From positions 32,001 through 96,000 of the forward strand of contig VENI01000008.1 of NCBI GenBank assembly GCA_009711615.1: DNA of 64,000 bases, written 5' to 3'. Positions 36,434 through 61,932 of the stretch are shown in pieces. How positions within the stretch are numbered: the first letter of the stretch is position 1; each line of letters begins with the position of its first letter. The stretch is from Bacillota bacterium (lineage in GTDB: Bacteria; Bacillota; Desulfotomaculia; Desulfotomaculales; Desulfohalotomaculaceae). Below the pieces are notes generated by a model. That model saw nothing but the letters and a program-made list of their open reading frames with translations. It was not told where the DNA came from and did no database searches. Both the position numbers and the translations under genes were made by a program.

Positions 36434-37009
36434 TTATTTAATGTCTTCAGTAATGTCCATAATTTTTAACTGAAACTGAAATCCTTCATATGAATTCAGC
36501 ATCCTGCCAAACTCTTCCCAAGTGAACTCCTTGCCGTCTATCACTAGTTTTGGAGTATCATTATCTTCGTTGTACTCAAATCTTCCCGTAACTTCACTAT
36601 CTTTGATAGAAATAGTCTTACCTCCATAGGGCGAAAAACTTTTTTTCAAATATCTTTTGAATATTGTCTTTTTGACCTTTGTTTTCAGCTTTTCTAACAA
36701 AAGTTGTTGGTCACAATCTACACCATCCATTACAGCTACGGTAAAACCAGGGCTACCATCTTTAGTAACTTCATTTGCTTCATATCCAATCCCCATAGGG
36801 CTTACTCTTCTTTGAACGTTAAAGATATGCTTTTTACCTCGTATCCCTGAAAACTCATAAATCCCTGGCTGGAAAGAACTAAGTTCTATCCCCATATAAT
36901 TTGCCGTAAAATTATTATTACATTCCATACAGATATGGATAGTTTTATTTTCAGAAATTGTTAAATGAACTTGTATATCATTTTTCCGACACAGCTCACA
37001 GAAACTCAT
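36434..37009 (-). CDS. Hypothetical zinc-finger-like protein
   Basis: The 191-residue protein starts with a zinc-knuckle pair (CELC at residues 4-7 and CMEC at about 27-30). It ends in a segment DGKEFTWEEFGRMLNSYEGF followed by QFQLKIMD, a pattern seen in small Firmicutes proteins that carry a CxxC...CxxC motif. The middle is basic (KLKTKVKKTIFKRYLKK). GGGAG lies upstream of the ATG. I cannot name the family with confidence. It sits alone in a decay zone and looks intact. Confidence 0.6.
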   Translation of the reverse strand: MSFCELCRKNDIQVHLTISENKTIHICMECNNNFTANYMGIELSSFQPGIYEFSGIRGKKHIFNVQRRVSPMGIGYEANEVTKDGSPGFTVAVMDGVDCDQQLLLEKLKTKVKKTIFKRYLKKSFSPYGGKTISIKDSEVTGRFEYNEDNDTPKLVIDGKEFTWEEFGRMLNSYEGFQFQLKIMDITEDIK

Positions 37010-37924: not shown

Positions 37925-39523
37925 TTATTCTTGTTTAAACTCGAGTTTACCCTTCAAAACTTCCGGTACATGTTTTGAAGAAATTTCATATTCAATATAT
38001 GGTGGAGTATCCTTAAACATAAGTACAGAAGGAAATGCCATAGTTGTGTTATGCTTTAAATACTCTATATGAAATGTCAAAATATCATTTTCTTCGTTTT
38101 CAAAAACCCTATACAGAAAAAGGGATTCTAAAGACTTTCGATAATCTTCTTTATCACTTTCATACTCTTCCGAGGCACTAATTTGATTTAACGGATTAAT
38201 CATCCCCATATCTTTATAAGATGGTGGTTGTATAGGATAATACCCATATTTTTCAACAGTGTCGCTCTCTTGTATTGAAAATACAAAATCGGTAAATTTC
38301 ATCTCTAATAATTCTTCTATTATATTTATACCCGGATACGGTAAATCCGAATGCTTTAAGATGCGACCTTTGGGGATTATTAGTTTAACGTCAATGTCCT
38401 CATCATAAGAATTGCCGACATTTGAAATTGCAAGTTTTGCAACGCTAATTACATCAATGTAACTAAAGTAGTCAATGTACTCATTGTAAGCTTTAACATC
38501 CCAATATAACTCTTCTAATAATGTATATCGTTCTTTTTCTTCCTCCGTTCCCTCAAATGAAGGACCACTATTACCAAAAGGATTTTTAAACTGTAAAATT
38601 TGCTTTTTCAAGTCGCCCACATTCCAGAAATCATCATCAAGTTTAATTTCATTTTTTTCAGCAAAATCTTTAATAGTACTTTTCCAATTATCACTAATAT
38701 CTGCATCTTTCATAGTTTCCGACACCATGTTAATGTTGCCCATTAGCTTTTGGATATCAATATTCTTCAGATAATTAGGGGGTTCCTTAAGTGTATCCTC
38801 AGGCCCCTTTGGATCATCTACTACCCGAGCCGGTAAACCTATATTTTTTAGTACTTGTATTTTTTTAATAATATCTTCTTTTTTATCATCAATAAACTTA
38901 CTGTCACACAAATTATTCTTGTACAAAGAATAATCTTTTTTTGCTAATGCATTTATATCTCTTACTTTCAAAATAGGATTTAACTTTTCATTTGTTGCGC
39001 CTTTCTCACCAGAGATCAGTGGTAAAAAATGTAGTGCAAGATGATTTGTAAACTGGCGTTGAAGTTCATGCTTGTCCTTAATTACAGCATAAACTCCTCT
39101 ATCTTTATACTTCTCCCTAAAATCCAAAACTCTTTGGTACTGATTCATATCGACTTTTGAGGGGTTAATTGGAGCATCTAAAAAGTACATAAATACTTGT
39201 TTGCCAACTGATAACATTTCTTCAATTTCTTCTTCTGTGCCTGAACCATACTTATCCGTTGGAGTACCAAATTTTGTCCAAAAAATTGCAATTGCCGCAT
39301 CACAATCTCTAACAAATTGTTTATTCAACAATTCTTGAGGTTTATCACCAGATTGAGGATAACTATCCGTGGACCAATGCTTAGTAACCACTTCAATATT
39401 ATTGATCACACCAAACACCCTGTTAAAACTTTCAACACTTTCTTTTATTACATCCAAATAGTCTAAGACATCTCCAGGACAAGAAATTAATAAATCATAA
39501 GCAGTAATTCCTTTTCTTGGCAT
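37925..39523 (-). CDS. DUF4062-domain protein of a defence-type locus
   Basis: The 532-residue protein begins with a DUF4062 domain (about residues 7-130): AYDLLISCPGDVLDYLDVIK, then HWSTDSYPQSGDKPQE, DAAIAIFWTKFGTPT and GTEEEIEEML. DUF4062 often forms the N-terminus of STAND/NLR-like or other immune-type proteins and is thought to have a TIR-like/nucleotide-binding fold. The middle is helical. The C-terminal part (about 340-500) includes LAISNVGNSYDEDIDVKLIIPKG, a beta-sandwich-like region. The ATG at 39523 follows AAGGAGGTG; the longer start has no site. It is the last gene of the run. Confidence 0.7.
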   Translation of the reverse strand: MPRKGITAYDLLISCPGDVLDYLDVIKESVESFNRVFGVINNIEVVTKHWSTDSYPQSGDKPQELLNKQFVRDCDAAIAIFWTKFGTPTDKYGSGTEEEIEEMLSVGKQVFMYFLDAPINPSKVDMNQYQRVLDFREKYKDRGVYAVIKDKHELQRQFTNHLALHFLPLISGEKGATNEKLNPILKVRDINALAKKDYSLYKNNLCDSKFIDDKKEDIIKKIQVLKNIGLPARVVDDPKGPEDTLKEPPNYLKNIDIQKLMGNINMVSETMKDADISDNWKSTIKDFAEKNEIKLDDDFWNVGDLKKQILQFKNPFGNSGPSFEGTEEEKERYTLLEELYWDVKAYNEYIDYFSYIDVISVAKLAISNVGNSYDEDIDVKLIIPKGRILKHSDLPYPGINIIEELLEMKFTDFVFSIQESDTVEKYGYYPIQPPSYKDMGMINPLNQISASEEYESDKEDYRKSLESLFLYRVFENEENDILTFHIEYLKHNTTMAFPSVLMFKDTPPYIEYEISSKHVPEVLKGKLEFKQE

Positions 39524-39577
39524 GCAACCCACCTCCTTTGATTTCCATTTGTTATATTGAATTCTCAAGATTATCTA

Positions 39578-40416
39578 TTATTTATTCTTAATTGAAGGCA
39601 ACACAGTATCCAGATACTCCTGCCAATATCCTTCATCGTCGCCTTCCATATCATTAAGCCAATAATACATAAACAGAATTTCAAGTTCTTGCTTTCTTCC
39701 TTTTATGAATGGTTTCTTCGGCATTTTTCTATATAAAGGGTTGAGATTAAATAGATTGCTTTTCTGCTTATAATCATAGTCGTACTTCCTAAAGGAATAC
39801 TGGCTCTTCTTCCTATGAGACGCGGGCCACATATCTTCATTATCATAAAATCTGTTAATCCAATTATAGGCAAATGCAGCAAGGTTTACATGGTTTTTAG
39901 TCTAGGTTTTTTCAAGCCAATCACTAATCTCTTCAGAAATTGTTGGCACACCAAAGTCAAAATGTTTTTGGCTTTGTACCCTATGATAGTCTTTGATAAA
40001 GAGGAAAAGCATTTCAGTCTGCTCTTTAAGAAATGGTATTTTTTAATAAGTTTAGTATAGCATTCATATGAGAGACTTCTGAATTCACTGTCAGTATTAT
40101 ATAGAAAAAACAGCTCATCCTCCTTCAACATATTACCAATATACTTGTGGACCTGCTTTCCATATTCGTCATACATACTAACTGCCCAATCTCTCACTTC
40201 AGGCTCATAATCTTGGAGCTGCTTTCGATATTTCTCCAATTTTTCATTTTGTAGCACTGTTTTTTCTTCGGCCTCAGTAATATTCAGATAGTTGTTAAAG
40301 TACTCAAATACATAATCAACACAGGATTTCATGTTTTGAGTCCGTTCATCTAGGTCAAACTCATTGAGCTTATCTTCTTTTTTTCTGCGAGCGATATACT
40401 CCTCAATTGTAAGCAT
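39578..40416 (-). pseudogene. Unknown protein gene with one frameshift and one amber codon
   Basis: Two ORFs here are halves of one gene. From the ATG at 40416 the frame is good to about residue 125. At a run of six T (40039-40044, six A on the coding strand) the sense frame shifts by one: the other frame continues PFLKEQTEMLFLFIKDYHR and GVPTISEEISDWLEKT, meets TAG (39902-39904), then continues TKNHVNLAAFAYNWINRFY into the ORF ending at 39578. The full product would be about 279 residues, helical and charged, with no family recognised. It lies between the two large helicase-locus genes. Confidence 0.82.
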
Positions 40417-40514
40417 ATGAACACCTCAATTTTTCTCTTTTAACGGTTCTTTTAGTTAACCATATCAAGAGCGCCTGTAAATCTTATCACCTGCATTAAG
40501 TTAATGGCAGAAAA

Positions 40515-43500
40515 TCAACTATTTTTTAACCATGTTTGAATTTTACTCTCTATTAATGTTGCATCCAAACTTCCGTCTAATCCATCCTCGGTAATTATCA
40601 AATTCCCAAGAGTTTCTGAAATTCTCACACTTTCATAGTTTGCTCGCTTTTCGTCCCAACGCTTTTTATATGATTTATCACTTAGCATTCCAAGATGCTC
40701 TAAATAAGCAGTTTTGCCCTTGTAGCGTAGAGTAAAATCAGGAATATAGGTTTTACCACTAACATTTAATGGTTCTTCATAGAAATACTCAATATTAAAC
40801 TTATCGAGAATATTAGCCACAATTACTTCGGACTTTGATCTAACCATTTCACCACGAATCGTTTTATGGATTAGTTTTTCTTCAAAGTACCGTTTTTGTT
40901 TACTAAACTCTATCTCAATGATGTTTGGAACTTCAAATAAGTCTGTATATCGTTGTTTGGTATCCGAATACCAGTCATTTGCATACTGAACTAATTCTTG
41001 AATTGACAAATCACTTAATACAATTAGTTTTTCTCTTTGGCGGGATAACGCAGTATACAAAAGTTCTTTTGTAACAAATGAACTTTTACCATTTATGACT
41101 ACTATGGTTTTGCCAAAGCTAGAACCCTGTGATTTGTGAACAGTAAGAGCATAAGCAAGTTCTAGCTTAGAATCGCTATTATCACCACCAAAATCAGCTT
41201 TAGTATATGAAAATACTTTTCCCTCAAATGAGCCAAAACGGAATTTATACCAACTAGTATTCTTATCATTTTTGCCATAGTGGCTTGGGTAATCCACCAT
41301 GATACCAATTTCACCATTTGCAATATATGCTTTTCCCGATGAACCATCCCAGTAATCCTTCTCACCATTTACATTAGATATGACTTTATCTCCGTAAACA
41401 ATATTTTGAACAGATTGAGGACTGTTTTTTGACCATGTATATGCATTCCATTTCTCGACAATGTCTTGACGATATTTTCCGTGAAGTTGATTATTCAAAT
41501 AATAGCTTCCTGCACCAATAAATTTTGTTGGAGATAGAATTTGCCAGTCTTCTATATGTTTACTAGTTGGATAATTTGTATATTTGTCTACAATAGCTCC
41601 CAAACTTTTATTAAACCCATCAATATCATCTTCATTAGTCATATTTGTAATTTCCACCAATTCTTCAAAGAACACTTTTTCTAACTCGTCTAAATCGGTG
41701 TATTGAATATATTTAAGACGATTATCTGTTTCATTGTTTTGTATACGGTAAATTACATCTTTATCGACTGAATCCGAATTAGAGAATATTTGAGCAAATG
41801 ATAAATCATCACCACCTGAACCTTGTCTCATCTCAATTTTCAATGTTGCAACCTTTTCAGGATATGAACCCTCTAAATAATTAATCAAATCGACAAATGG
41901 GCGTCCTGCTCCTATTGGAGGTAATTGATTTGGATCTCCTATAAAGATGATTCTTTCAGCATGAGAATCAACAAGCTTTAGTATGCCAGCAAACATATCT
42001 TCAGTCAGCATTGAACTTTCATCGATAATAACTGTTTTGGCAATACTCGAACTAGGTTGGCTTGGCATCTTATAAGCCATTGTGTTCCAACTGAAACCTT
42101 TTGAACGAGTTAAAAATTGTGCCACAGTCATAAACTCAGCATTAACACTATTCTTCTTAAATGAATTCTCAAGTTGAACTCTTGCTTTCCCAGTAGGGGT
42201 TAATGCTAATACACCACCAGCTCTAATTTCTTTTGAAGATGCAAAAATCCCCAATGCTGATGTTTTACCCGTCCCTGCTCTTCCCAATAGGACAGATATC
42301 TTAGATGATTCGAGAATCCTTAACGCTATCGCCTTTTCATCACGAGCCAGTTCATCGTTTTCTTCATTATTTTCTTGAAGTGCTCCAAATTGGTCGTCAA
42401 TAATTTTTCTCCAGTTTTGTTCACTTGATAAACTAGTTCCTAAACGGCTACTTACTATATCGACTACCACTTGTTTATAATCTTGATATTCTTTCAGCTT
42501 GATGTAAGTATTTTCCACATCAACGTGCAATTCACCTTCCTGCAAGAACTCTAGAACACCTTCGATCTTTTCTGTTTGAAAATCTGTTTTATTATCTAAT
42601 GGTAATTTGTTAATTTCTTCAACAATTTGATCATAGCTGAGTAAAGTATGGCCTTGATTTGCCGCTTGAACTAAAACAAATATCACCATAGCTCTAAATC
42701 GGCGTTTATCACTATCAGTTCTCATTTTGGTTGGTTTCTTAAGAGGATACTTATTTTCCACCAACGGATTCACAAACATTGCATTGTCGATTTGAGAAAT
42801 AGTAACTTGATGAATGTCCTTTTCTTTTCGTGTAAGTTCATATAAGAGGTATGGGTTTTCAACAATTTCATCTGCATAATTTTTCAGGTTACCCCAAGCA
42901 TAAATAGCTTGTTCAACAGAAAGATTCAATCGAGACAAAAGTTCAAAGAATTGAGTTTTGTTTTCATTTCTTAATAAACCAGTAAACTCATCCTCTTTGT
43001 CAGCTAAGCTGTCATCCAGTTTCACGTTGCCAGTTTCTTTCTCCCCTGAAAAATATAACTTCAATTCAGAAATCAAGTCGTTTTCAGAAGTATCAACATG
43101 ATGAGCAACATCGAAACCATATCGAACACCGAAAGCTGATAAAATTGAACCTAATCCTGGGAAAATACCACGTTGATTCCAAACGCTTTTTAATTGATTA
43201 GCAACATATTCAAGTTGAACATTAACCCATTCATGATTGGCTTCTTTTAGCTTGAGTTTAGCTATATTTTTCAATGCAATTTTCGCTTGATTTAGAACAT
43301 CAATAGCAGCATCGTAGCTGACCCATTCAGCTGCATATGAAAATTCCGATCTAAAACCTGCCGCTTCAAACAATGTGACACTCGATACATCAAAATCAGG
43401 ATGCTTTTTTACATGATCGGAAATTTCATGATATGGCATTAAAAAGCCATATTTGCCATCAACTCTTATTGAATGAGCTGCATTTGTCTCCCAAATGTAG

Positions 43501-44168
43501 TTTTTTTCGTCACTGCTTCCATCAGACTCATACTCATGAGTTTCTACATTTGATACTATATTTCCTATTCCTGCAATTACACGCCGATTATCTTCGATAA
43601 ATGGAACTTGTTTGTAATATGGAAATATCAATGAATTGTGTGGACTAATTCCGGAAAAGAAATAGTCGAAAATTCCTTTTTGAGATTCTCCATGCGATAC
43701 CCACGAGCTTGACCAGCTCAGCATTTGTTCTGTTTTTTCTAAGTCAAAATAAAAATTGTAATACCTTTGTTTTTCATTGGCATTATCCTTTAAAGTCCAT
43801 GAAAAGGGGCGCAATAAAAATGAATAAGGGTTCATCACAAAAGTTGTTTCTTCGAAATGCTTGAACTTAGCATTTCCTTTTTTATATGGATGGTTCATTT
43901 TAAGATAAAGCTTGGTATCACTCATGAACGCAGCGTTCTCTGTAATCCAGTTTTGCATTTTTACTGGTCCTACTTGTTTGTAACTTTTACCTTTATTTGT
44001 TTCCTCAAACTCCAAGTCCCGTGAGGATGCAATGTTGGGGATTACTTGAGCAGCTACATTATACCTAGGATTATTGTCAATTCGCCCAGTATAATCGTTA
44101 TCCTTCCATGGAATTCTTGTTGAAAAGTGTTGTACATAGTTTATTTGTGGATTAACTTTCTTACACAT
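40515..44168 (-). CDS. RecD-like SF1 helicase with C-terminal PD-(D/E)XK-like nuclease domain
   Basis: The 1217-residue protein has a long N-terminal region (1-600) of unknown fold. The helicase core follows: Walker A GRAGTGKT (about 629-636), motif II IIDESSM (about 712), GDPNQLPPIGAGRPF (about 743), the motif V-like VHKSQGSSFGKT (about 1010) and YTALSRQREKL. The AAA_30/UvrD_C_2 order is that of RecD/TraA helicases. From about 1100 a nuclease-like domain follows: RSKSEVIVANIL, then YEEP, YIPDFTLRY and AYLEHLGM, fitting E-D-ExK of PD-(D/E)XK. It probably acts on DNA ends as a helicase-nuclease. The ORF is intact. Its start lies 14 bases after a broken ORF. Confidence 0.85.
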   Translation of the reverse strand: MCKKVNPQINYVQHFSTRIPWKDNDYTGRIDNNPRYNVAAQVIPNIASSRDLEFEETNKGKSYKQVGPVKMQNWITENAAFMSDTKLYLKMNHPYKKGNAKFKHFEETTFVMNPYSFLLRPFSWTLKDNANEKQRYYNFYFDLEKTEQMLSWSSSWVSHGESQKGIFDYFFSGISPHNSLIFPYYKQVPFIEDNRRVIAGIGNIVSNVETHEYESDGSSDEKNYIWETNAAHSIRVDGKYGFLMPYHEISDHVKKHPDFDVSSVTLFEAAGFRSEFSYAAEWVSYDAAIDVLNQAKIALKNIAKLKLKEANHEWVNVQLEYVANQLKSVWNQRGIFPGLGSILSAFGVRYGFDVAHHVDTSENDLISELKLYFSGEKETGNVKLDDSLADKEDEFTGLLRNENKTQFFELLSRLNLSVEQAIYAWGNLKNYADEIVENPYLLYELTRKEKDIHQVTISQIDNAMFVNPLVENKYPLKKPTKMRTDSDKRRFRAMVIFVLVQAANQGHTLLSYDQIVEEINKLPLDNKTDFQTEKIEGVLEFLQEGELHVDVENTYIKLKEYQDYKQVVVDIVSSRLGTSLSSEQNWRKIIDDQFGALQENNEENDELARDEKAIALRILESSKISVLLGRAGTGKTSALGIFASSKEIRAGGVLALTPTGKARVQLENSFKKNSVNAEFMTVAQFLTRSKGFSWNTMAYKMPSQPSSSIAKTVIIDESSMLTEDMFAGILKLVDSHAERIIFIGDPNQLPPIGAGRPFVDLINYLEGSYPEKVATLKIEMRQGSGGDDLSFAQIFSNSDSVDKDVIYRIQNNETDNRLKYIQYTDLDELEKVFFEELVEITNMTNEDDIDGFNKSLGAIVDKYTNYPTSKHIEDWQILSPTKFIGAGSYYLNNQLHGKYRQDIVEKWNAYTWSKNSPQSVQNIVYGDKVISNVNGEKDYWDGSSGKAYIANGEIGIMVDYPSHYGKNDKNTSWYKFRFGSFEGKVFSYTKADFGGDNSDSKLELAYALTVHKSQGSSFGKTIVVINGKSSFVTKELLYTALSRQREKLIVLSDLSIQELVQYANDWYSDTKQRYTDLFEVPNIIEIEFSKQKRYFEEKLIHKTIRGEMVRSKSEVIVANILDKFNIEYFYEEPLNVSGKTYIPDFTLRYKGKTAYLEHLGMLSDKSYKKRWDEKRANYESVRISETLGNLIITEDGLDGSLDATLIESKIQTWLKNS

Positions 44169-44181
44169 TAGCCCTCTCCTC

Positions 44182-44582
44182 CTAAACCTCTATTACGTAA
44201 TACCTGCTATTACTATAAACTGGTCTCCAGGAAAACTCGTAATTACCTCTTAATGTAATAGAGTTTTTACCTTTCAGAGGCCCTGTTGGTTTGAAAATTT
44301 GACCATAAACTGCATATTTTTTTTGAAAATACTTATAAATGCCTTATTTGTTGCGTCCTTCGTAAAAGGGTCTATCTGATACAAAAAAGGTAATATCTAA
44401 CTTGCTGCCTATTATTTTGGAAATAATAAAATTTCCGCTTTGATACCTTGTCCCACTTCTGTTTTCAATAAGAATAAAGACATTTTCTGAATGCCACAAC
44501 ATAGGTATGCCTCTTTTATTTGCTTGACAAATAGAAACATACCTACGTATAAATTCGGGATACGTCGAAATTACCTGCTACT
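44182..44582 (-). pseudogene. Hypothetical ORF with an in-frame stop, upstream of the RecD-like gene
   Basis: A single minus-strand frame is protein-like throughout: PEFIRRYVSICQANKRGIPM, then ENVFILIENRSG, RPFYEGRNK, TAA, then GIYKYFQKKYAVYGQIFKP and SWRPVYSNSRYYVIEV. No start codon is obvious at the upstream edge. It ends 14 bases before the RecD-like gene. The protein (about 130 residues) is not recognised; it is read here as a gene of the locus with a nonsense mutation. Confidence 0.6.
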
Positions 44583-44586
44583 TCCG

Positions 44587-44861
44587 TTATTCTAGGTTTA
44601 ATATCTTCTGGATATCTAGGTTCTTATTATGTATATCAAACTTATTTTTCCTAACAAAAACATATCCCTTGCCACGTAGGGATTTAACTTGTATCTCACG
44701 AAAACGTTTATTTTTATCTTTTACAACGAAATCCACACCGTGGTCGTCTACTTCCGAGGTATAAACATCTAATCCATTCAAGCAAATTCCATTTTGGCAA
44801 AATACTCAGCATATTTACCTAGTTTTAGGTTATTAAGTTTTGTCCAATCCAAGTTTGGCAT
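44587..44861 (-). pseudogene. Small PD-(D/E)XK-type nuclease gene broken by one frameshift
   Basis: From an ATG at 44861 (AAGGAG upstream) the frame reads MPNLDWTKLNNLKLGKYAEY then KMEFA and TGA. One base out of frame it goes on NGLDVYTSEVDDHGVDFVVK, REIQVKSLRGKGYVFVRKNK and stops at 44587. The order GKYAEYFAKMEF...DDHGVDFVV...EIQVKS is the E-D-ExK layout of DUF4365-like/PD-(D/E)XK nucleases. One missing base near GAATTTGC explains the break. The expected C-terminus may also be missing, so it is probably inactive here. Confidence 0.75.
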
Positions 44862-44922
44862 AGTCTTAAATCTCCTTAATCGAGGATTTAATTTTTAAAA
44901 ATTTATTGCCTTCCTTTTGCCA

Positions 44923-47900
44923 TTATTCATGTATCTGAACATCGACAGCATTGTCTTCACTTCTAACTTCATATCGTTTTTCAGGCTTTCTATATACATT
45001 GACCAACTGATGACTTGTTGAAAACGAATTATCCTCAAGATAACTGTTGCTTCCGAAAATCATTTCTTCGATATACCGCGATTCTCGCTCAATCCAATCT
45101 GGCTGTTTCTTGCATAATTTTTCGATTCTTTTTATCATTGTGAGATTGCTAACATTTTCAGTAGAATCGTCCGGCATAATTATAAACAAATAATCTCTAG
45201 CACGACTAATAGAGACATTTACGATGTTAAGTTTATTGAGAAACATATCCTTTGAAGTCGATATTGACGGTGGCGGGTTGAATAGTGCGATAATAATGTC
45301 GCATTCATCACCTTGGAATCCGTGAATAGTCCCTACTTGAACATCAACATTCTTAGGGATCGTGAAAGAGGCCATTAACTTATCTATCAAGTCAGACTGA
45401 GCACGATACGGCGCAATCAAGCCTATACGAAAATACTCATCTCCATTTGCCATTTCAAGGAGAGAAGACATGTACTTTACGAACTCAAATGCAAAAAGTG
45501 CGGAATACACCTGATAATTACTCTTGCTTTGTAGACGTTTCGGACGATAAATGCTCTCGTATTTACTTACAGGAAATTTTATGATATTTAATGGCTTTAT
45601 ATCAATGAAGTCTTCAATAAGTAATGGTCGTCTATTATCTGTTGTACGGTTATGATGTAACACACCGCCATATGCAAACTGGCTGAACACTTCGCCAATT
45701 TCGGGAATGCTTCTATATTGAGTGGTCAGGAGTTCGACCTGGTACTGGTAGGGAATCGTTAAAGGTTGGGTAAACGATTTGAGTTCCACCATAGTGTAGA
45801 TGTTTTCGTTTTTCCAGATGTCTACGGTGGTAATCGGCTCTATCTGGAATGGGTCTCCCGCGATGATGAACTTCTTAGGTGTCTTCTTGTAAATTGGGAA
45901 AATGATATTGACCAGCGGAATCATAGACGCTTCGTCAATGATGATATAGTCCCACATTAGCGCACTCAAATGAAGCCTCGTGTTTTCGTCCGGCAGGAAG
46001 TAATCATAGGGGAAACGGGCAATTGTCGTAACCGTCACATTTCTTGGGAAAGTTCGAATATCAAAAGTCTTATCACTGAAAACCCCGCTCTGTTCAATGA
46101 TGCTGTCGTTAGTTGCCCCGAAGCGGACAAGCCAGTTAGTGTAACTGTGGTCTGCTCCCATGCTCTCCATAAGACGGCGTACAAGTACATCCGCCGCTTT
46201 GTTTGTCGGGGTCAAGACAAGAACTTTCAAATCCTCGTCTTCCAGCATAATGGGGAGAATAACCTCTCTCGCCAGATGAGTTGTTTTGCCGGTTCCGGGG
46301 GGGCCAAAAACGAACTCGATATTTTCGCATAGGTTGCTCTGCATATCGTAGTCGTCATCGAAATCCAGTTTATTAAATGCTTTCCGCAGTTCCTCCATTA
46401 GGAATACGGGGTTTTTTGCCTCTATTCTTGCTTCTTTGACGAGTGATAAATCCACCCCGTCTATGTTCGCGTTTGTCCTCAGTTTCGCCCTTAATGTGTA
46501 TGATTTTACGTTAACAACTTCAACTGCGACTTTTACCATCGACTGATTTGCAAAATGCAATTCAAGTGGAATATCCGCAAGGTCTTCCATAGACTGGGGG
46601 ATATAGCGGTTTGGATGCTTCAAGATAAGGGTTCGTGACGTGCCTTCCTCACGTTCTACCTTTGAGAAAGATATGGAAATCTCCCTACTGTTGGCGTTAT
46701 TCTCACCGCTGTTCAGAGATTCCATTTCAAGTAAAGCCTTGAACCACCCATAAGAATACTTGTCTGCATTGAGAGCTTGTTGAGTTAAATCTTCAAGATA
46801 AGCAATTTCTCTAATTTCCCGTTCACTTCGTTCTTTTGCTTGTTCAATTTTCCTACTGAAATCAACCGATGGCTTTAAATAATCATCCTCGTCGGCAACG
46901 GATGAACTTTCTTTGTCATCGGCTGGAGTGCCCGTTTTCTGTTTAGGTGCGGAAGTTGCTCTCTTGGAAATTTCCTTTGCGACGCGAGAAACAGATGGGT
47001 TGACAGTGGTAGCTTGATCATCCAGCATATCATCACTATCGTCCTCATCATTATTGCCCGCACATTTTTTGGCACGATATTCTTCAGCAGCCCGCGCCAG
47101 CACTTGCGGCGGTACATCCGTATAGGCATCAGCAAACTCTATTTTTGCCCGTTGCTCGTCGGTTAAATAGTCGTCGTCCTCATTTTCATCGATTTCTTCC
47201 AATATGCCTAAAAAATGGATTAGTTCTTTGGCTTCGTCACTCGAAGTGTCATATTGCTGAGAAATCGTTTGCAGAGTCAAATTGTCTGCAGAAACAAATT
47301 CGTCATCAATGTTCAATAGCCACGGTTTTGTGCGTAGTCGCCGTGCTTCAAACGATTCAAACAATTCACTTTCATAACGACGATAGAAATATTCATAAGT
47401 CCCGTATATTACATCCTTAAAGTGTTTCCAGCGTGAACATTTAGAAGATATTATCTTCAACAATTGATTCCATAGGGCAACGGATGTTTTGGGGGTCACA
47501 TTATTAATTACTTGTTTGCTCCCGTCAATATAGCGGTCTGTCCACTCCCGTGTATGCATATTGTAATACGCGGGCTGATTCCATTCATATGACGGTTTAA
47601 GCTTATATGCTTGTTCCTCGGTTAATTTTCGTTCGATAATAATTGTTTCTTTTTTTACGCCAAGTTCAGTCAGAAAACTCTCTAAGTAAGTAATATCTTT
47701 CTCATCAACAATGGACATATACTCAGCTAAATCAACAAATCGGGTATCTGGCTTCGGCTCGAAGTATTTCTTCATATCTTCCATAGGCCAGTAGAGGTCG
47801 CTCGCTTTCCCACGATAAACCGTGTCATCTTCAGCAGATCTATAGCTAACGAATTCGCAATCCCTAATTAAATCTATGTAGTCCTCGATCTCTGACTGCG

Positions 47901-49716
47901 GACACTCTTTATAATACTTAAAGAAGTTTCGAAAATGCGGGTCGGTATAAATCTCTTTAGCATCCTGATATTGCGGCAGAATAATATTGTAAATCTCATC
48001 TCGTAGCGAAGGTTCCTTTATACCTAGTCGTTGAATTAACTCGACCGTGTCTTCCTTATCTAAGAGAGCTTCATTAATGGTTTCGTAGCCGCTGACATCT
48101 TCAGAGGGAAGGAACAGTATGGCTTGTCCATTATCGTCAAAAGCGGCAAAAGCCCTATTGTCTTGATTTAGGAAAACCGGCTTGGTCTTTATTAGTTTTG
48201 TCCGGACATCCGTGCCAGAAACCCATTTGTAAAAGCTGTGTAACCAGTCAATTGTCTGTGCTTCAATGAATGTTGATGAAACACCACTTTTAGAGGTTCC
48301 GTCTTGATAAGTCCAACCTTCAAGAATATCTTCTTCGTTTAACCAAGCATTAGTAATTGAATCAATATATTCAGTAAGTGCTTTGTTCTTACGTAAAGTT
48401 TCCTGCCGACCAAAAGATGTGAAAACCCATTTGGCGTTCTCGTCTTCGCACAATGTAGCCAACTGCTTATTTGAAAATACCTCGGCAATTTGAGGAACGA
48501 ACGCCCAGTATGCATTTTGCATTGATATAAATCCATCAAAAGCTGGTAACAAGTCCTCGTTACTCATCTTTCCCAGAATAGCTGTATAAAATGGCTTGAA
48601 TGAAATTTTCCTTTTGTCGTTCACATCGCCAAAAGTTCCTTCGTCATAAGGAATAATGTCAAATATCTCATCATTAATAAGTGGATAACCATTTGCTTGA
48701 CCAATATCTCTAAGATAAACAAGACTATCCGCCGCCAAAGCAGACAATAATTCAATCATATCTTTATTATGCTGAACAGCTGCCCGGATACCCTCGCGGC
48801 TGTCAGTAAGCAAGAACGGTGCGTGAATAATGAAGTTCAGACCGGTTACCTCTTTTGTCGGGAAGAAGCAAAAGGCTGAATGGTGTTCTGCGGTCAGATT
48901 TCCTTTTTCATCGAGAAAGAAACCGACTGAATATCTATGTCCATTACCGTCTTTGCGTGAAAACAACCACAGCCTATCGTCATAGATTTCATCACCATCA
49001 TTTTGCGTAAGGCAAATAAGCTCCCCAACTGTTAAGCCGAATTGCTGCTTTTGCTCTATGAATTTACCGTATAATCCCAATGCGCCAGGGATTTCTAGCG
49101 AAATATTCTCAAGATGTGACAAAAACAAAAGCGGGTAATCTAACGAACGAAGTTTCTCAGAAATATCCTCATATGCCTCCGCTGCAATTCGCTCTGTGTG
49201 GTCAAACGGAAAAACAAATAATGTTTCGTCTGTTTTCCTGCCAAAAAAATCTTCACTAATTTTTGTCGGTACGATAAAACGATCTATTTTAAAAAAGATG
49301 TTCGGGTCATAAATATGCGGTGTTGATGTGTATTGAAACACCGACTTAAATCCAACACCAAATTTACCTATTGAGGCTTCACGTTTATTAGAGTTAGCAA
49401 TTGACGTTATTGCGTTAATATCGCCTAACGCATTGTTTGCGGAATCTTCTGCTTCAGTTGCTGGATTGGATATAGAAAATCGCCGTGATCCGTTATGCGC
49501 AAAGATTAATTTATCTTTATGCAACACAAAGCGAGCCGATGTTGCTTTTGCATCATCAGCGTTTTGGAGCAACTCATATATAAAGTGCGCTTGGTCGGAA
49601 TACTTCTCAACAACACTGTTCTTTACTCCGCGCAATGCAGGATCATCTAGAGCGTCAGCAAGACGCTCTCTGTGATTTGATAATTCGACAAAATAAATCT
49701 CTTCCTGAGTGTTCAT
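44923..49716 (-). CDS. Giant sacsin/HSP90-like ATPase fused to an SF1 helicase
   Basis: The 1597-residue protein has two ATPase parts. The N-terminal GHKL/sacsin-like domain shows ELLQNADDA (48-56) and GKFGVGFKSVFQY (117-129), with LTDSREGI later. A long helical middle includes an acidic, disordered segment (about 860-960). The C-terminal DNA2/UPF1-like SF1 helicase has Walker A GPPGTGKT (about 1136), IIDEASMIPL (about 1257), GDPFQIEPI (about 1285), HGFQGDECD (about 1462) and SISRARDYLFI (about 1500). The combination suits an ATP-driven sensor-remodeller acting on nucleic acid. GGGGGAAG precedes the ATG. It is the first and largest gene of the run and is intact. Confidence 0.85.
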   Translation of the reverse strand: MNTQEEIYFVELSNHRERLADALDDPALRGVKNSVVEKYSDQAHFIYELLQNADDAKATSARFVLHKDKLIFAHNGSRRFSISNPATEAEDSANNALGDINAITSIANSNKREASIGKFGVGFKSVFQYTSTPHIYDPNIFFKIDRFIVPTKISEDFFGRKTDETLFVFPFDHTERIAAEAYEDISEKLRSLDYPLLFLSHLENISLEIPGALGLYGKFIEQKQQFGLTVGELICLTQNDGDEIYDDRLWLFSRKDGNGHRYSVGFFLDEKGNLTAEHHSAFCFFPTKEVTGLNFIIHAPFLLTDSREGIRAAVQHNKDMIELLSALAADSLVYLRDIGQANGYPLINDEIFDIIPYDEGTFGDVNDKRKISFKPFYTAILGKMSNEDLLPAFDGFISMQNAYWAFVPQIAEVFSNKQLATLCEDENAKWVFTSFGRQETLRKNKALTEYIDSITNAWLNEEDILEGWTYQDGTSKSGVSSTFIEAQTIDWLHSFYKWVSGTDVRTKLIKTKPVFLNQDNRAFAAFDDNGQAILFLPSEDVSGYETINEALLDKEDTVELIQRLGIKEPSLRDEIYNIILPQYQDAKEIYTDPHFRNFFKYYKECPQSEIEDYIDLIRDCEFVSYRSAEDDTVYRGKASDLYWPMEDMKKYFEPKPDTRFVDLAEYMSIVDEKDITYLESFLTELGVKKETIIIERKLTEEQAYKLKPSYEWNQPAYYNMHTREWTDRYIDGSKQVINNVTPKTSVALWNQLLKIISSKCSRWKHFKDVIYGTYEYFYRRYESELFESFEARRLRTKPWLLNIDDEFVSADNLTLQTISQQYDTSSDEAKELIHFLGILEEIDENEDDDYLTDEQRAKIEFADAYTDVPPQVLARAAEEYRAKKCAGNNDEDDSDDMLDDQATTVNPSVSRVAKEISKRATSAPKQKTGTPADDKESSSVADEDDYLKPSVDFSRKIEQAKERSEREIREIAYLEDLTQQALNADKYSYGWFKALLEMESLNSGENNANSREISISFSKVEREEGTSRTLILKHPNRYIPQSMEDLADIPLELHFANQSMVKVAVEVVNVKSYTLRAKLRTNANIDGVDLSLVKEARIEAKNPVFLMEELRKAFNKLDFDDDYDMQSNLCENIEFVFGPPGTGKTTHLAREVILPIMLEDEDLKVLVLTPTNKAADVLVRRLMESMGADHSYTNWLVRFGATNDSIIEQSGVFSDKTFDIRTFPRNVTVTTIARFPYDYFLPDENTRLHLSALMWDYIIIDEASMIPLVNIIFPIYKKTPKKFIIAGDPFQIEPITTVDIWKNENIYTMVELKSFTQPLTIPYQYQVELLTTQYRSIPEIGEVFSQFAYGGVLHHNRTTDNRRPLLIEDFIDIKPLNIIKFPVSKYESIYRPKRLQSKSNYQVYSALFAFEFVKYMSSLLEMANGDEYFRIGLIAPYRAQSDLIDKLMASFTIPKNVDVQVGTIHGFQGDECDIIIALFNPPPSISTSKDMFLNKLNIVNVSISRARDYLFIIMPDDSTENVSNLTMIKRIEKLCKKQPDWIERESRYIEEMIFGSNSYLEDNSFSTSHQLVNVYRKPEKRYEVRSEDNAVDVQIHE

Positions 49717-51224: not shown

Positions 51225-52637
51225 TTATTTAATTTGACATTCAATCTCCGTCCCATCCAGTAATGAAAATATGGCCTTACCATCTTCAAACACCGTTATC
51301 TTCTCAACCAGTGCAAAATACAAATCCAAATTAAACTCTGTTATTGGCGTGGCTTTCCTGATAATTTCAATAAAATGGTTTGCTTTATATCTTTCTAGTA
51401 GGTTTTCACTGTTTAGTTTATCTTTCCATTTTTCCATAAAGTAATCTTTATTTTCGAGTATAGCATTAAAAGTGTTTACGAAAGCCTGGTATAAAATTTT
51501 ATCAGCCACATGTTTGTTGTCACAGCACTTTTTTCCTTTAGCGATGTACTTTTTGTTACACCGCCATACAATTTTTCTAAACCTGTCATCGTTAGAATTC
51601 CATACTTTTCTGCCAAAGATGCTGCCGCATTTCCCGCATATCACCCTGCCTGCAAAAGGATTATCTACTGTAGCATAATCTACTTTTTTAATGTCATGTT
51701 CCTCTGCAAAGGCTCTTCTTCTCTCCATTTCAAGCTGGACCGCTTCCCACATGTCCTTATCGATAATGGCCGGGTGGCTCTCTTCTACATAATACCGGGG
51801 AATCTGCCCTGTGTTTACCACTCGTTTCTTTGTCAGAAAATCTACCGTGTAGGTTTTTTGAAGAAGGGCATCGCCTTTATATTTTTCATTTTGAAGCATA
51901 TTTCTAATGCTGCTTTCATACCACTTTGCTTTCCCGTTCCAGTTTGGTACCCCTTCTGCCTCTAACTCCCTGGCTATCCTGTTTGGTCCCTTGCCATCAA
52001 GGTAATCCTTATATATCCTTCTGACTATCTTGGCCTGTTGTTCATTAATAACAAGGTCCCCATCCTCATCCTTGTCGTAACCCAGAAACTTAGTATGATT
52101 GACAGCAACCTTGCCCTGCTCAAATCGCCTTCTAATTCCCCATGTGGAGTTCTCAGAAATTGATCGGCTCTCATCTTGAGCGAGGCTGGAAAGAATGCTT
52201 AGCAGGACTTCCCCTTTACTATCTAAGGTGTTAATATTTTCTTTTTCAAAAACGACCCCAATGCCTAAGTCTTTAAGCTGCCGGACATAATTTAAGCAGT
52301 CTAAGGTGTTTCTTGCAAACCTTGATATGGATTTAGTAATAATCATATCAATTTTTCCGGTCTTACAGTCCTCAATCATTTTATTGAACTGCTCTCTCTT
52401 CTTAGTGTTGGTACCAGAGATACCCTCATCTGCATAAATGCCAGCATATTCATAATCAGGATGGTTAGAAATGTAACCAGTATAATATTTAACCTGTGCT
52501 TCATAACTTGATAACTGTTCTAACTGGTCTGTCGAAACCCGGCAATAGGCCGCCATCTTCTTTTTCTGTGGTTTTAACCTTTCCGCGGTGCTCTGATTGT
52601 TTACCCTTGCGGGTATAACTGTAATGTTTTTTGCCAT
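51225..52637 (-). CDS. Large serine recombinase (integrase/resolvase family)
   Basis: The 470-residue protein has a resolvase domain with YCRVSTDQLEQ (catalytic Ser of the CRVS motif, about residue 35), TKSISRFARNT, then the Recombinase domain (KFLGYDKDEDGDLVINEQQA) and a zinc ribbon (CGKCG...C...C). A coiled segment follows. It performs site-specific integration or excision without a host recombinase. AAGGAGG precedes the ATG. The gene start overlaps the end of the preceding recombinase ORF. Intact. Confidence 0.93.
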   Translation of the reverse strand: MAKNITVIPARVNNQSTAERLKPQKKKMAAYCRVSTDQLEQLSSYEAQVKYYTGYISNHPDYEYAGIYADEGISGTNTKKREQFNKMIEDCKTGKIDMIITKSISRFARNTLDCLNYVRQLKDLGIGVVFEKENINTLDSKGEVLLSILSSLAQDESRSISENSTWGIRRRFEQGKVAVNHTKFLGYDKDEDGDLVINEQQAKIVRRIYKDYLDGKGPNRIARELEAEGVPNWNGKAKWYESSIRNMLQNEKYKGDALLQKTYTVDFLTKKRVVNTGQIPRYYVEESHPAIIDKDMWEAVQLEMERRRAFAEEHDIKKVDYATVDNPFAGRVICGKCGSIFGRKVWNSNDDRFRKIVWRCNKKYIAKGKKCCDNKHVADKILYQAFVNTFNAILENKDYFMEKWKDKLNSENLLERYKANHFIEIIRKATPITEFNLDLYFALVEKITVFEDGKAIFSLLDGTEIECQIK

Positions 52638-53777
52638 CCTTTCTAACCTCCTTTATAATGGTTTCTTCCTTTATATTCAGCCTGCTAACCACTTCATCAT
52701 CTATACTAGTTCCTGCGCAGGCACATTTTCCATTTTTAATATAGTTACTGCATTGCCATACTATTTTTTTGTAGGAAAGTTTACTGTTCCAAGTCCTGCG
52801 TCTTAATGTAGCACCACATTTACCGCAGTAAAGCATTCCCGTTAGAGGGTATCGATTAAGGTGTTTCCTTTGATGCCTTTCGCTTCAGCTCTTAATTTCA
52901 TTTCCACACTAACTGCTTCCCACATTTCCTTTGTAACAATTGGTTGATGGTTATCTTCTATATAATAGCTTTCTACTTGACCGTTGTTTGGTACTGTCCC
53001 TTTCTTTAAATGATCCGGAGTATAATACTTTTGCAGTATGGCATCTCCTTTATATTTTTCGTTCTTAAGAATGTTCAAGACTGTGCTTTCATGCCATCTG
53101 CCCCCTGCAACAGTCGATATTCCATCTGCATTCAATTCCTTGGCTATGGTAAATACCCCTTTGCCCTCTAGATAATCATTAAAAATTCTTTTAACTACTT
53201 TTGCTTGGTTTTGGTTTATAACCAAATTACCGTTATCGTCCTTATCGTAGCCCAGAAACCTTGTGGTGTTAATTATCAACTCCCCTCGCTCAAATTTCTT
53301 TTTTACCCTCCATTTGAGGTTGTCACTGACATTTTTACTTTCTTCCTGGGCAAAAGAAGAGAGGACGGTAAGCATTAACTCACCGTCCCCTGATAAGGTA
53401 TTTATATTTTCTTTTTCAAATCTTACTTCAACACCTATTTCTCTTAGTTCCCTAACTGTTTGTAGCATAATCGCTGTGTTTCTGGCAAACCTTGAGATAG
53501 ATTTTGTAATAATCAAATCAATGTCACCTTGCCTTGCCAGTTCTAGCATTCGTTTAAACCATGGTCTATTTTCAATGGTTCCACTAATGCCTCGATCGGC
53601 AAACACACCAGCAAACTCATATTCAGGATTTGCTTTGATGTATCTCTCGTAATAGCTTATCTGGTTTTCTAGTGATTCACCTTGCTTTTCATGTTCACTG
53701 GAAACTCTGGCATAGGCGCATACTCTTTTCTTTGTTTCCTTGGTTTCTTCTGTTGGCGCTATGATTCTAACCCGCAT
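52501..53777 (-). pseudogene. Second large serine recombinase, frameshifted in the zinc-ribbon linker
   Basis: The ATG at 53777 with AAGGAGGG upstream gives MRVRIIAPTEETKETKKRV, then YARVSSEHEKQGE (catalytic Ser), TKSISRFARN, the Recombinase domain with FLGYDKDDNGNLVINQNQ. The frame stops at 52842, just after KGNTLIDTL. One base out of frame, RYPLTGMLYCGKCGATLRRR, the expected zinc ribbon, continues to 52501. A one-base indel near 52850 splits the gene. Its 3' end overlaps the downstream recombinase. The catalytic part is complete; the DNA-binding end is detached. Confidence 0.85.
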
Positions 53778-54826
53778 TAAGGCCCTCCTTTCTATCAATT
53801 TGGTAGTAACATATATCACTCTAAAGGCCTTTATAGTCAAGTTAATAGAGCCGTTTATTCGAACTTTATATACATCAAAACCCGCTTTTTTAAGTTTTTT
53901 AAGTGTTGCCTCCGCATTCTCTTTTTTAGAAAGAGCCCCCACCTGAACCCGGTAATATTTCTTTATTTCAGCGGGTTTTTCGGGTGAGGGTGAAATAACA
54001 GCAAGAATATCCTTATCAACCCAAGTCATAATCCCGGCTGCCTCTTCACCTGTTTTCTTATCAACCTTTTTTCCCAGCAGGACACATTGTTTGCCACCTT
54101 TAATGACAGGTTTTTCTCTAAAGCGTAATTCGGTCACCTTATGAAATGTATCCCTTTTCACCCATGCAGGAATGATAGGCCCTCCGGGATAATACTTATC
54201 TGCACTAAGTTTTATTGCCACTACGTCACCAACTGCAATGTCATTTACTTCAGCTGCTTGGCTGTTTCCCTTATTCAGTTCTGCTTTAACAGCTGTCCGG
54301 AAAGTATCCATATTCTCTCCATGCTTTGGAAACCAGTGCAGCACGTCAGCGTGGTTACTGGCAATTCCCCTTTTATGGCCTTCACTATGGCAGATGATAT
54401 CTCTTTCACTCAGTCCAAACTTCTGACAAAGCATCACACAAAGCTCAATAGCATTCTGCCATGTTTTTCTAAAGTAGGCTTCCTGTTCTGCCACGTCATA
54501 CCCCACCATATTGGCTCCAGTGGAATAAGAAAACCCACTTGGCTCACAGAGTTCAAAGCCAATGTGGGTATTGTTTGCATTACCTCCAGCGTGCCAGCCT
54601 CGGTGATTCCATGGGAGGTACTGATAAACCCCTTCATCATCAACAAAGGCATGAACGCACACCTGCCGGTTTATCTCACCGGCTTTATAAGATTTATTCC
54701 AGCGATTAAACCACTCTGCCGTCATTACACCTGGAGTTGCAGTTGAGTGCACCATAATGCCTTGGGGGTTGATCTTCCTTCCTGGTAGCAATCATTATTG
54801 GTCATATATTTTGCGGTTAGTTTCAT
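53778..54826 (-). pseudogene. Phage N-acetylmuramoyl-L-alanine amidase (endolysin), frameshifted and fused to the recombinase frame
   Basis: An amidase_2 domain is clear: GIMVHSTATPGV, VHAFVDDEGVYQYLPW, WHAGGNANNTHIGFELCEP and ICHSEGHKRGIASNHADVLHWF. Then come an SH3-like region and a SPOR-like end (YYRVQVGALSKKENAEATL). The natural start is the ATG at 54826 (MKLTAKYMTNNDCYQ, GAGGAG upstream, inside the holin gene), but the frame shifts before GRKINPQ. Its 3' end has no stop before the recombinase start, so the long ORF is an artificial fusion. The lysin is probably inactive. Confidence 0.85.
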
Positions 54827-60039: not shown

Positions 60040-61653
60040 TTAAGACCCAGCAACACCTAAGTTTCTAACTGTCACCGTGTTTTGGTTCCACTGTAGCTGG
60101 GCAATAATCCGGGTCAGCACCGTACCATCAATGGTTAAAGGTATGGTCACATTAAGTCCCGCATCTTCAGTTCCTTTGGTATCAGTGCTTACCTGACTGT
60201 TCAGGTCAAGGTCAAAGTCAGTGGGTATTGCTCCTTCCATATCTTTTTCTACACCCCGCATGGCACTACTAAAGCCTTCACCGATCCCTTGACCCATGTT
60301 CTCACCAATCCCGGCAAAGACCTTCGAGGGCGAGCGAATACCAAGGCCACCTTTGACACTGCTGACAATACCGCCTACGAAGTCGTTGACTTTTCTCTGT
60401 AACCAGCTAATCATTGAAGCGATACCATCCCAAAGCCCTAATACAATGTTTTTGCCTACTTCAACGATTGAATAAGCCGCTTTCCCAACACCTATAACGA
60501 TGGCAGCAACAATCTGGGGGAGTTGGGCCACAAGCTGTGGGATTGCTTGAATAATTCCCGCAGCAAGCTGAATGATAAGCTTTATTACCATCTCAGTAAT
60601 CTGTGGCAGACTAGCGGCAATAAAGTTAATAATTGAGCTAATGATGGTCGGCAAAGCCTCCATAAGTTTTGGCAGTGCATTTAAGATTCCCATTGCCAGG
60701 CCTTCGATAATTTTAAAGGCCGCACCTAGAATCATGTCCAAATTACTTATGATTACGTCCACTATTAAAGTCAGTGTTTCCACAATAGCTGGAATAAGCT
60801 CCGGTAATGCCTCACCTATACCGGTGGCCAAGGTTACAATAATCATTAGAGCTGCTTCTACCAGTGCAGGCAAGTTATCAATAATACCATCCACCAAAGC
60901 AATAACAAGGTGTAACGCTCCTTCTGTAATTTGAGGAAGGGCAGCGATTAAACTATCCAGTAGGGTCATAACAATCTGCATGGCAGAATCAATAATTACC
61001 GGGAGGTTGTCGACTACGGCCCCTGCGATGGACGTCACAATTTGAAGGCCTAAGGTGACAAACTGCGCAGTTGTTCCGTGATGATAGTTGTGATACCACC
61101 CACCGTCTTGCCAATGATGTCAGAGATTTTATCAAAATCTCCGTCTGCAGCATTGATGCCGTTGGAGAGTTCGGAAAACAGATCGGTAATTCCAGCAGAC
61201 ACTTCACTCACCGCAGGTAAAAATACACCTTGCAGGGATCGCTTCACACCCTCAAACCCATCGGTCAGATTGTTATATTTAACCTCTGTAATTTGCGATA
61301 GGGCATCACTACTGGCCAAGGTACTGTCTTTCATACTAGCAAGCACAGGTAAAACATTGGCCTCTAAATCCTCAAACTGGGTTCCAAAGAGTTGTACCCC
61401 AATGGTATTTTTAAGCAGCGGATCTTCAATTTCTTGCAGTCTTTCAATGACGTTATAAAAGGCATCGTTTGCCATCTCTCCGCCTTGGGAAAACTGTCTT
61501 GTCATCTCTTCAGCACTTAACCCTAGTGCAGTAAAAGCCTCTATGCTGGTTTTGCTGCCGTCTTTTGCCAAAAAGTACCCCTTACTCCATTGGGGGTCCT
61601 TCCATTTTGCGTTGGCAAGTGAGTTTACCACTGTCTCCCAAGTAACCAGCCAC
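60040..61653 (-). pseudogene. Phage tail tape-measure protein, frameshifted and truncated by an insertion
   Basis: Two frames form one tape-measure C-terminal half. The first (61631-61050) reads KWKDPQWSKGYFLAKDGSKT and QGGEMANDAFYNVIERLQE. A one-base loss near 61066 shifts it: ITEQL joins AQFVTLGLQIVTSIAG in the next frame. The second frame continues with repeated hydrophobic units (VDNLPVIIDS, IDNLPALVEA) and GIRSPSKVFAGIGENMGQG, the typical tape-measure end. The N-terminal half is replaced at about 61653 by other DNA. The gene cannot make a full tail. Confidence 0.88.
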
Positions 61654-61654
61654 G

Positions 61655-61808
61655 ACCGCTTTGTGCGACCAGCATGGCTGGTTGGTTAATTGGCTATTCG
61701 ACAATCATCGACGTAATGCGGGTGGTACCCGGAGCTTTCTTTCGACTCACCCAAAGGTAGAAGCGGTTCGGTCTCGCAATGATTAAATTAACAATTTATA
61801 CAGAAAGC
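61655..61808. other. Unassigned segment between the tape-measure break and the IS21 left end
   Basis: About 150 bases contain a perfect short hairpin (CCAGC / GCTGG) and begin, on the plus strand, GTGCGACCAGCATGGCTGG, a start resembling group II intron 5' ends (GTGCG...). No reverse transcriptase is present. The match is only to the first bases and is weak evidence. Confidence 0.25.
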
Positions 61809-61932
61809 TGTAAGTGGTAAACTAAAAGGGACAAATTTTGGCCATTAAAAACGGACGATTATTTCCAGTTCACATACCACTTTTCTTAGTTAACTGGTAT
61901 ATTTATCAGGTAACGTGAGAGGAGTGAATAAA

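What the first reader, a model, noticed from the sequence alone, without database searches (positions are those of the whole stretch)
37925..49716. Candidate undescribed defence-type locus: sacsin-helicase, RecD-nuclease, DUF4062 and small ORFs
The sequence shows same-strand genes for a GHKL/sacsin-like ATPase fused to an SF1 helicase, a small PD-(D/E)XK-type nuclease, a second small ORF, a RecD-like helicase with a C-terminal nuclease-like domain, a helical ORF of about 279 aa and a DUF4062 protein. Two large ATPases with nuclease domains and an immune-type module, next to a prophage, fit known defence-island logic. I do not recognise this gene combination as a named system. Co-function is inferred from strand, order and short gaps.
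Basis: partly seen in the sequence, partly recalled or inferred. Interest (0 to 1): 0.85.

Follow-up and report, generated by a model that had tools for sequence, protein, structure and literature searches.

The report
Paired helicase ATPases near restriction systems

Summary
The genes are present, but the six-gene "system" dissolves. Two ORFs are broken: the small PD-(D/E)XK-like gene is frameshifted, and the ~279-aa helical gene has a frameshift and a stop. The DUF4062 protein never accompanied the others elsewhere. DUF4062 is now described as a stand-alone TIR-like NADase defence, Swarozyc (PMC13174449). What remains is a pair of intact genes: a sacsin-GHKL ATPase fused to a UPF1-like SF1 helicase (Sacs), and a RecD2-like helicase with a C-terminal PD-(D/E)XK-type nuclease. 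PADLOC already lists the latter as candidate PDC-S68.

The pair recurs on one strand in five further loci (Clostridium, two unnamed Firmicutes, Hymenobacter, an IMG/VR contig), in both gene orders; two more RecD loci carry a different GHKL/sacsin partner. The RecD tree forces at least five gains or losses of the partnership. RecD also lies beside type I R-M, DISARM, BREX or MADS genes, and Sacs is the third gene of type III R-M operons in four lineages. Against that, most copies of either gene lack the other, and enrichment over other restriction loci is modest (p about 0.02-0.07).

Best reading: modular accessory motors of modification-based restriction, here beside a decayed prophage. No function was tested.

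The parts
44923..49716 (-). Sacs-SF1: sacsin-type GHKL ATPase (about aa 30-420, Pfam SACS, NF047352) fused to a UPF1/IGHMBP2-like SF1 helicase (about aa 1100-1540); intact, 1597 aa
   Evidence: Walker A GPPGTGKT, DEASM, GDPFQIEP, GTIHGFQGDECD and the GHKL motifs ELLQNADDA / IGKFGVGFK conserved in 7 relatives
44587..44861 (-). remnant of a small PD-(D/E)XK/Mrr-like nuclease gene; longest open fragment 44587-44781 (64 aa), frameshifted at both ends
   Evidence: weak Pfam matches, E about 0.05
40515..44168 (-). RecD-nuclease (PADLOC PDC-S68): N-terminal about 480 aa of unknown function, RecD2-like SF1B helicase (about aa 485-1055), C-terminal PD-(D/E)XK-type nuclease (about aa 1090-1217, motif RSKSE..PDFT..EHLG); intact, 1217 aa
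   Evidence: AlphaFold pLDDT 78, pTM 0.78; best PDB match RecD2 3gpl, TM 0.75 by target
39578..40416 (-). pseudogene of a helical protein; pieces 39886-40416 and 39578-39832, separated by a frameshift and an in-frame stop
   Evidence: continuous 549-aa relative on Cohnella herbarum plasmid
37925..39523 (-). DUF4062 (TIR-like, Swarozyc-type) protein, 532 aa, conserved GSGTEEEIEEM with Glu97; ATG start at 39523 preceded by AAAGGAGG
   Evidence: DUF4062 function from PMC13174449
51225..52637 (-). serine recombinase of the adjacent prophage (context: cargo position)
   Evidence: relatives in the same order in L088 and L203
52842..54791 (-). one ORF joining an amidase-SPOR endolysin with a second serine recombinase (prophage lysis/recombinase end, context)

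Best explanation
The Sacs-SF1 and RecD-nuclease genes are a modular, recurrently assembled pair of anti-phage motor proteins. Both often travel with DNA-modification-based restriction systems. Proposed mechanism: self DNA is marked by a resident methyltransferase system (type I or III R-M, DISARM, BREX). DNA ends, gaps or single-stranded DNA made by restriction, or present in replicating phage DNA, are entered by the RecD2-like 5'-3' helicase and cut by its C-terminal PD-(D/E)XK nuclease. Sacs-SF1 uses its sacsin/GHKL ATPase as an ATP-driven clamp or remodeller (by analogy with MutL, MORC and Hsp90) and its UPF1-like helicase to strip or unwind nucleic acid, licensing or extending the nuclease. 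Shown here: domains, intact motifs, recurrent adjacency, repeated independent pairing, R-M neighbourhoods. Inferred: defence function, dependence on methylation, direct interaction and the order of events. The neighbouring DUF4062 gene is a separate Swarozyc-type NADase acting by abortive infection, also inferred from family membership.
For: The pair is adjacent or in one operon, same strand, in the window, L032 Clostridium sp. BSD9I1 (137 bp gap), L051/G115 (31 bp), L087/G533 (51 bp), L099 IMG/VR (4-bp overlap) and L066 Hymenobacter plasmid (with Mod and Res between), in both orders. RecD has a different GHKL/sacsin partner in L091 (Tiamat-like, 2e-98) and L064. On the RecD tree the six pairings need at least 5 gains/losses; the window's Sacs is closest to G533's (73%) although G533's RecD is only about 37% identical to the window's, so partners are re-assorted. 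Sacs loci found without using RecD: 3 of 10 carry RecD, against 5 of 397 genomes (p=0.0006) and 0 of 23 type I R-M loci (p=0.02). Sacs follows type III Mod-Res in L065, L066, L170, L173; RecD adjoins HsdR, DISARM-type, BREX or MADS genes in about 11 of 31 loci.
Against: Most copies of each gene lack the other (23 of 28 RecD-found loci have no GHKL neighbour; 7 of 10 Sacs loci lack RecD), so neither needs the other. Against type I R-M loci as background the enrichment is marginal: GHKL near RecD 5/28 versus 1/23, p=0.20; RecD near Sacs 3/10 versus 1/24 if G115's own R-M locus is kept in the control, p=0.07. In the window the two genes are 754 bp apart with a gene remnant between, and the nearest R-M (HsdMSR) is about 16 kb from Sacs, beyond a prophage fragment and an IS. 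No activity was measured.
Confidence: 0.5

Rival explanations
1. No functional link: a defence island in which three independent one-gene defences (PDC-S68 RecD-nuclease, a sacsin-helicase, a Swarozyc-type DUF4062 NADase) accumulated beside a prophage and a type I R-M.
For: Each gene is found without the others in most loci; PADLOC models PDC-S68 on its own; enrichment over type I R-M loci is marginal.
Against: Operon-like spacing (-4 to 137 bp) in four loci, both orders, and at least five gains or losses of the pairing on the RecD tree; RecD also pairs with two other GHKL types.
Confidence: 0.38
2. The first reader's single multi-gene system of all six ORFs, including DUF4062 and the small ORFs.
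For: Same strand and order in the window only.
Against: Two ORFs are pseudogenes; DUF4062 relatives stand alone (Aerococcus L067, prophage L203) and no other Sacs-RecD locus carries DUF4062 or the helical ORF.
Confidence: 0.03
3. Prophage cargo that has become inert: the whole stretch is decaying together with the defective prophage and has no present function.
For: Two broken genes in the run, an IS21-type element inside the tail gene, other genomes carry different cargo at the same recombinase-proximal position (L088, L203).
Against: The three large genes (1597, 1217, 532 aa) remain fully open with all motifs intact, and the window RecD is 94-95% identical to copies in other Firmicutes.
Confidence: 0.09

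Closest known systems
PADLOC PDC-S68 (phage defence candidate, PDLC05065)
   Same: The window RecD-nuclease matches it end to end (aa 10-1214 of 1217 to 3-1219/1221, E=0).
   Different: PADLOC gives no description; its recurrent GHKL/sacsin partner and R-M neighbours are not part of that entry. No paper in the library names it.
RecD2 / RecD (SF1B DNA helicases)
   Same: Helicase core and fold (3gpl TM 0.75; RecD of RecBCD).
   Different: Far below the RecD2 curated cut-off (168.7 vs 500 bits); extra N-terminal about 480 aa and a C-terminal PD-(D/E)XK-type nuclease.
Mokosh (MkoA/MkoC) helicases
   Same: C-terminal UPF1-like SF1 helicase (MkoA E=1e-32, MkoC 3e-20).
   Different: Only the helicase part matches; no kinase or phospholipase D domain detected; sacsin GHKL at the N-terminus instead.
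Tiamat (TmtA)
   Same: N-terminal GHKL/sacsin part aa 39-844 matches TmtA 38-844/1302 (E=2e-38).
   Different: Carries an SF1 helicase at the C-terminus; the rest of TmtA does not match.
MORC/paraMORC GHKL ATPases in R-M operons (Iyer et al. 2008, PMC2292703)
   Same: GHKL ATPase + helicase + PD-(D/E)XK nuclease + methyltransferase gene neighbourhoods, including type III-like systems, with GHKL families replacing each other.
   Different: Those are MORC/MutL-like GHKL-S5 proteins with SF2 helicases; here the GHKL is sacsin-type, fused to SF1, and the nuclease is on a RecD2-like SF1 helicase.
Swarozyc (DUF4062 TIR-like NADase; PMC13174449)
   Same: DUF4062 protein: TIR-like domain with a conserved Glu in a GSGTEEE motif, C-terminal auxiliary region, defence-island and prophage setting.
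   Different: The auxiliary region could not be compared with the KpSwz portal-binding HTH/winged domain (AlphaFold pLDDT 39).

Membership tests
PADLOC PDC-S68 | full-length profile match | tested here: met
   E=0, 1421 bits, aa 10-1214 of 1217
PADLOC PDC-S68 | anti-phage activity | not testable with these tools
   no experiment; no paper naming it found
RecD2 (TIGR01448 equivalog) | score above the curated cut-off | tested here: not met
   168.7 bits against 500
Swarozyc (DUF4062) | DUF4062 / TIR-like domain | tested here: met
   PDC-S60 N-terminal part 1.4e-27; Pfam DUF4062 E=0.002 (18.7 bits, below gathering 24.7); many DUF4062-annotated tblastn hits
Swarozyc (DUF4062) | conserved catalytic Glu | tested here: met
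   Glu97-99 in GSGTEEEIE invariant in the three relatives; which Glu corresponds to KpSwz E97 rests on motif position, KpSwz itself was not aligned
Swarozyc (DUF4062) | portal-binding C-terminal HTH/winged auxiliary domain | tested here: inconclusive
   C-terminal part present, but model pLDDT 39 with only 2 sequences
Mokosh | SF1 helicase plus kinase (type I) or PLD (type II) domain | tested here: not met
   helicase only; no kinase or PLD domain found. The definition is from general knowledge
Tiamat | TmtA full-length match | tested here: not met
   only aa 39-844 match; C-terminal half is an SF1 helicase
MORC/paraMORC R-M systems | GHKL-helicase-nuclease-methyltransferase gene neighbourhood | tested here: inconclusive
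   met in relatives; in the window the nearest methyltransferase (HsdM) is about 16 kb from Sacs
MORC/paraMORC R-M systems | MORC-specific S5 motif / MutL-like GHKL-S5 family | not tested
   the GHKL matches sacsin models (Pfam SACS, NF047352; PDB sacsin 5v47), no MORC model appeared
Type I or III restriction-modification | own methyltransferase and restriction subunit | tested here: not met
   neither gene matches such subunits; they are neighbours of R-M in relatives

The most novel reading that the evidence does not exclude
A general accessory machine: a GHKL/sacsin ATPase plus a RecD-type helicase-nuclease (often with a DrmD-like SNF2 helicase) that plugs into many modification-based defences (type I and III R-M, DISARM, BREX, MADS), with three or more distinct GHKL partner families exchanging places.
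Probability: 0.3. Interest if true: 0.75.

Novelty: new variant of a known kind. Interest (0 to 1): 0.5.

Why it matters
Many R-M, DISARM and BREX loci carry unexplained extra ATPases. If the sacsin-helicase and RecD-nuclease are exchangeable accessories of such systems, this would explain how restriction is followed by degradation or enforcement, link a eukaryotic-type chaperone ATPase (sacsin) to DNA restriction, and turn a listed single-gene candidate (PDC-S68) into a testable two-component module. It also shows that the DUF4062 gene next door belongs to another, recently described abortive-infection family.

Tried and rejected
The six-gene system was rejected (pseudogenes, no co-occurrence). 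AlphaFold of the DUF4062 protein failed (pLDDT 39, two sequences), so its auxiliary domain was not compared. Prophage attachment sites: no direct repeat of 16 bases or more between the cargo side and the far side; boundary undecided. IMG/VR scans with single DUF4062 and Sacs sequences found nothing; alignments worked better. The small PD-(D/E)XK remnant had no tblastn match in the related loci and only sub-threshold Pfam matches. Literature: no open-licence paper linking bacterial sacsin proteins to SF1 helicase defence was found; most subscription papers were not searchable. No Sacs match in 349 genomes of the class of Halobacillus, where RecD copies exist, so RecD there does without it; that search had no positive control.
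Full report
**Observation.** The run 37925-49716 lies on the minus strand. In transcription order it holds: Sacs-SF1 (44923-49716, 1597 aa); a remnant of a small PD-(D/E)XK-like gene (44587-44861); RecD-nuclease (40515-44168, 1217 aa); a broken helical gene (39578-40416); and DUF4062 (37925-39523, 532 aa from its ATG). The three large genes are open. The two small ones are not: frame translation shows the nuclease piece leaving its frame on both sides, and the helical gene split by a frameshift and a stop. A relative of the helical gene on a Cohnella plasmid is a continuous 549-aa protein.

**Domains.** Sacs: a sacsin GHKL ATPase (Pfam SACS 3e-17; NCBIfam 'sacsin N-terminal ATP-binding-like' 73 bits against a cut-off of 50; solved sacsin 5v47) followed by a UPF1/SEN1/IGHMBP2-like SF1 helicase. 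RecD: an SF1B helicase most like RecD2 and RecD by sequence and by predicted fold, far below the RecD2 curated cut-off. Its C-terminus carries an E..PDFT..EH motif in an alpha-beta-beta-beta-alpha-beta arrangement; its key acidic positions are conserved in 17 relatives. PADLOC matches RecD end to end as PDC-S68 and Sacs only in parts to Tiamat (GHKL part) and Mokosh (helicase part).

**Do the families co-occur?** RecD and Sacs were searched separately. They are neighbours in L032 (Clostridium sp. BSD9I1; Sacs then RecD, 137 bp), L051 (G115; HsdSR, YgjP, RecD, Sacs, 31 bp; this RecD copy carries one in-frame stop), L087 (G533; DrmD-like, RecD, Sacs, 51 bp), L099 (IMG/VR; overlap of 4 bp) and L066 (Hymenobacter plasmid; RecD, hypothetical, Mod, Res, Sacs). 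RecD has another GHKL-type partner in L091 (Tiamat-like) and L064 (sacsin-like), both with a DrmD-like SNF2 helicase.

**Is that more than chance?** Of ten full-length Sacs loci found without using RecD (G115, G428, G203, G533, G1086, L065, L066, L170, L171, L173), three carry RecD. RecD occurs in only 5 of 397 sampled phylum genomes (p=0.0006), and in 0 of 23 type I R-M loci used as a defence-island control (p=0.02; 0.07 if G115's own R-M locus is counted in the control). In the other direction, 5 of 28 RecD-found loci have an adjacent GHKL gene, against 1 of 23 control R-M loci (p=0.20) and 0 of 67 ordinary RecD-like loci (p=0.002). The link is therefore clear against the genome background and only suggestive against a defence-island background.

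**Repeated assembly.** On a RecD tree the six Sacs pairings need at least five gains or losses on well-supported branches, and on the Sacs tree at least four; shuffled labels give similar numbers, so the pairing is scattered over the tree, not inherited as a block. The window Sacs is nearest to G533's (73%), while the two RecDs are about 37% identical; conversely the window RecD is 94% identical to that of Clostridium BSD9I1, whose Sacs is 54% identical. Partners have been exchanged.

**Wider context.** Sacs-SF1 is the third gene of type III R-M operons in L065, L066, L170/L172 and L173. RecD adjoins type I HsdR (L051, L090, L095, L101), DISARM (L034; DrmD-like in L064, L087, L091), BREX BrxC/PglX (L060) and MADS-like genes (L094). 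The theme, a GHKL ATPase, a helicase, a nuclease and a methyltransferase, recalls the MORC/paraMORC R-M operons of Iyer et al. (PMC2292703), with different protein families. I found no open-licence paper that describes the sacsin-SF1 or the RecD partner.

**DUF4062.** A 2026 preprint (PMC13174449) shows that DUF4062 proteins are TIR-like NADases, the tested Klebsiella one being activated by phage portal protein (Swarozyc). The window protein keeps the acidic GSGTEEE motif and is 59% and 56% identical over its length to stand-alone copies in Aerococcus (L067) and in an IMG/VR prophage (L203). No other Sacs-RecD locus has it. It is best treated as a separate gene; its auxiliary domain could not be compared.

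**Genomic setting.** To the right lie a prophage recombinase/lysis/tail remnant, an IS21-type element and a type I HsdMSR set, then trmA-like and other housekeeping genes. Two other prophages with the same lysis-tandem-recombinase end carry different defence genes at the same position: UvrD plus a sacsin protein and a further ORF (L088), and DUF4062 (L203). The stretch is thus probably cargo of a prophage end; the exact boundary was not found.

**Mechanism.** I commit, at about even odds, to accessory motors of modification-dependent restriction: the RecD helicase-nuclease degrades DNA entered at ends or single-stranded regions, with Sacs-SF1 as ATP-driven remodeller. Only the anatomy and the gene-neighbourhood facts are shown; function, interaction and methylation dependence are inference.

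Noticed in passing
L065, L066, L170, L172, L173: Sacs-SF1 is the gene directly after type III R-M Mod-Res genes in Chryseobacterium, Hymenobacter and IMG/VR contigs.
   Followed up: partly
L062 (Vibrio fluvialis plasmid NZ_AP028130.1, 39500-43153): RecD-nuclease 84% identical to the Firmicutes one on a gammaproteobacterial plasmid, next to a qnr gene: transfer between phyla.
   Followed up: no
window 51225-54791; L088 3452-6017; L203 3107-6663: Tandem serine recombinases after a holin-amidase module, each followed by different defence cargo (Sacs/RecD/DUF4062; UvrD-sacsin plus a further ORF; DUF4062): a cargo hotspot of this prophage type.
   Followed up: partly
window 52842-54791: A single ORF joins an amidase-SPOR endolysin to a serine recombinase, apparently a fusion in the decaying prophage.
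   Followed up: no
window 61050-64000: IS21-type istAB element interrupts the prophage tail gene.
   Followed up: no
L200 1589-7479 (G000:C10:97589-103479): Type I HsdM-HsdS-HsdR on the same strand just beyond the IS element, about 16 kb upstream of Sacs at its near edge.
   Followed up: partly
L051 3826-4488; L091 1025-1840: YgjP-type metallopeptidase lies between HsdR and the RecD/GHKL genes in two unrelated loci.
   Followed up: no
L033 3036-7759, L035 5997-9910, L053 558-4084: Conserved three-gene set ending in an AAA+ ATPase next to RecD in two Paenibacillus genomes (the RecD largely deleted in one) and near a Sacs fragment in G127; unidentified.
   Followed up: partly
L092, L097, L098, L100: RecD-nuclease at the end of phage-tail-like gene modules in related IMG/VR contigs, so it is also carried by phages or phage-like elements.
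   Followed up: no
window 36434-37009: 191-aa protein combining DUF7685, DUF7686 and DUF7713.
   Followed up: no
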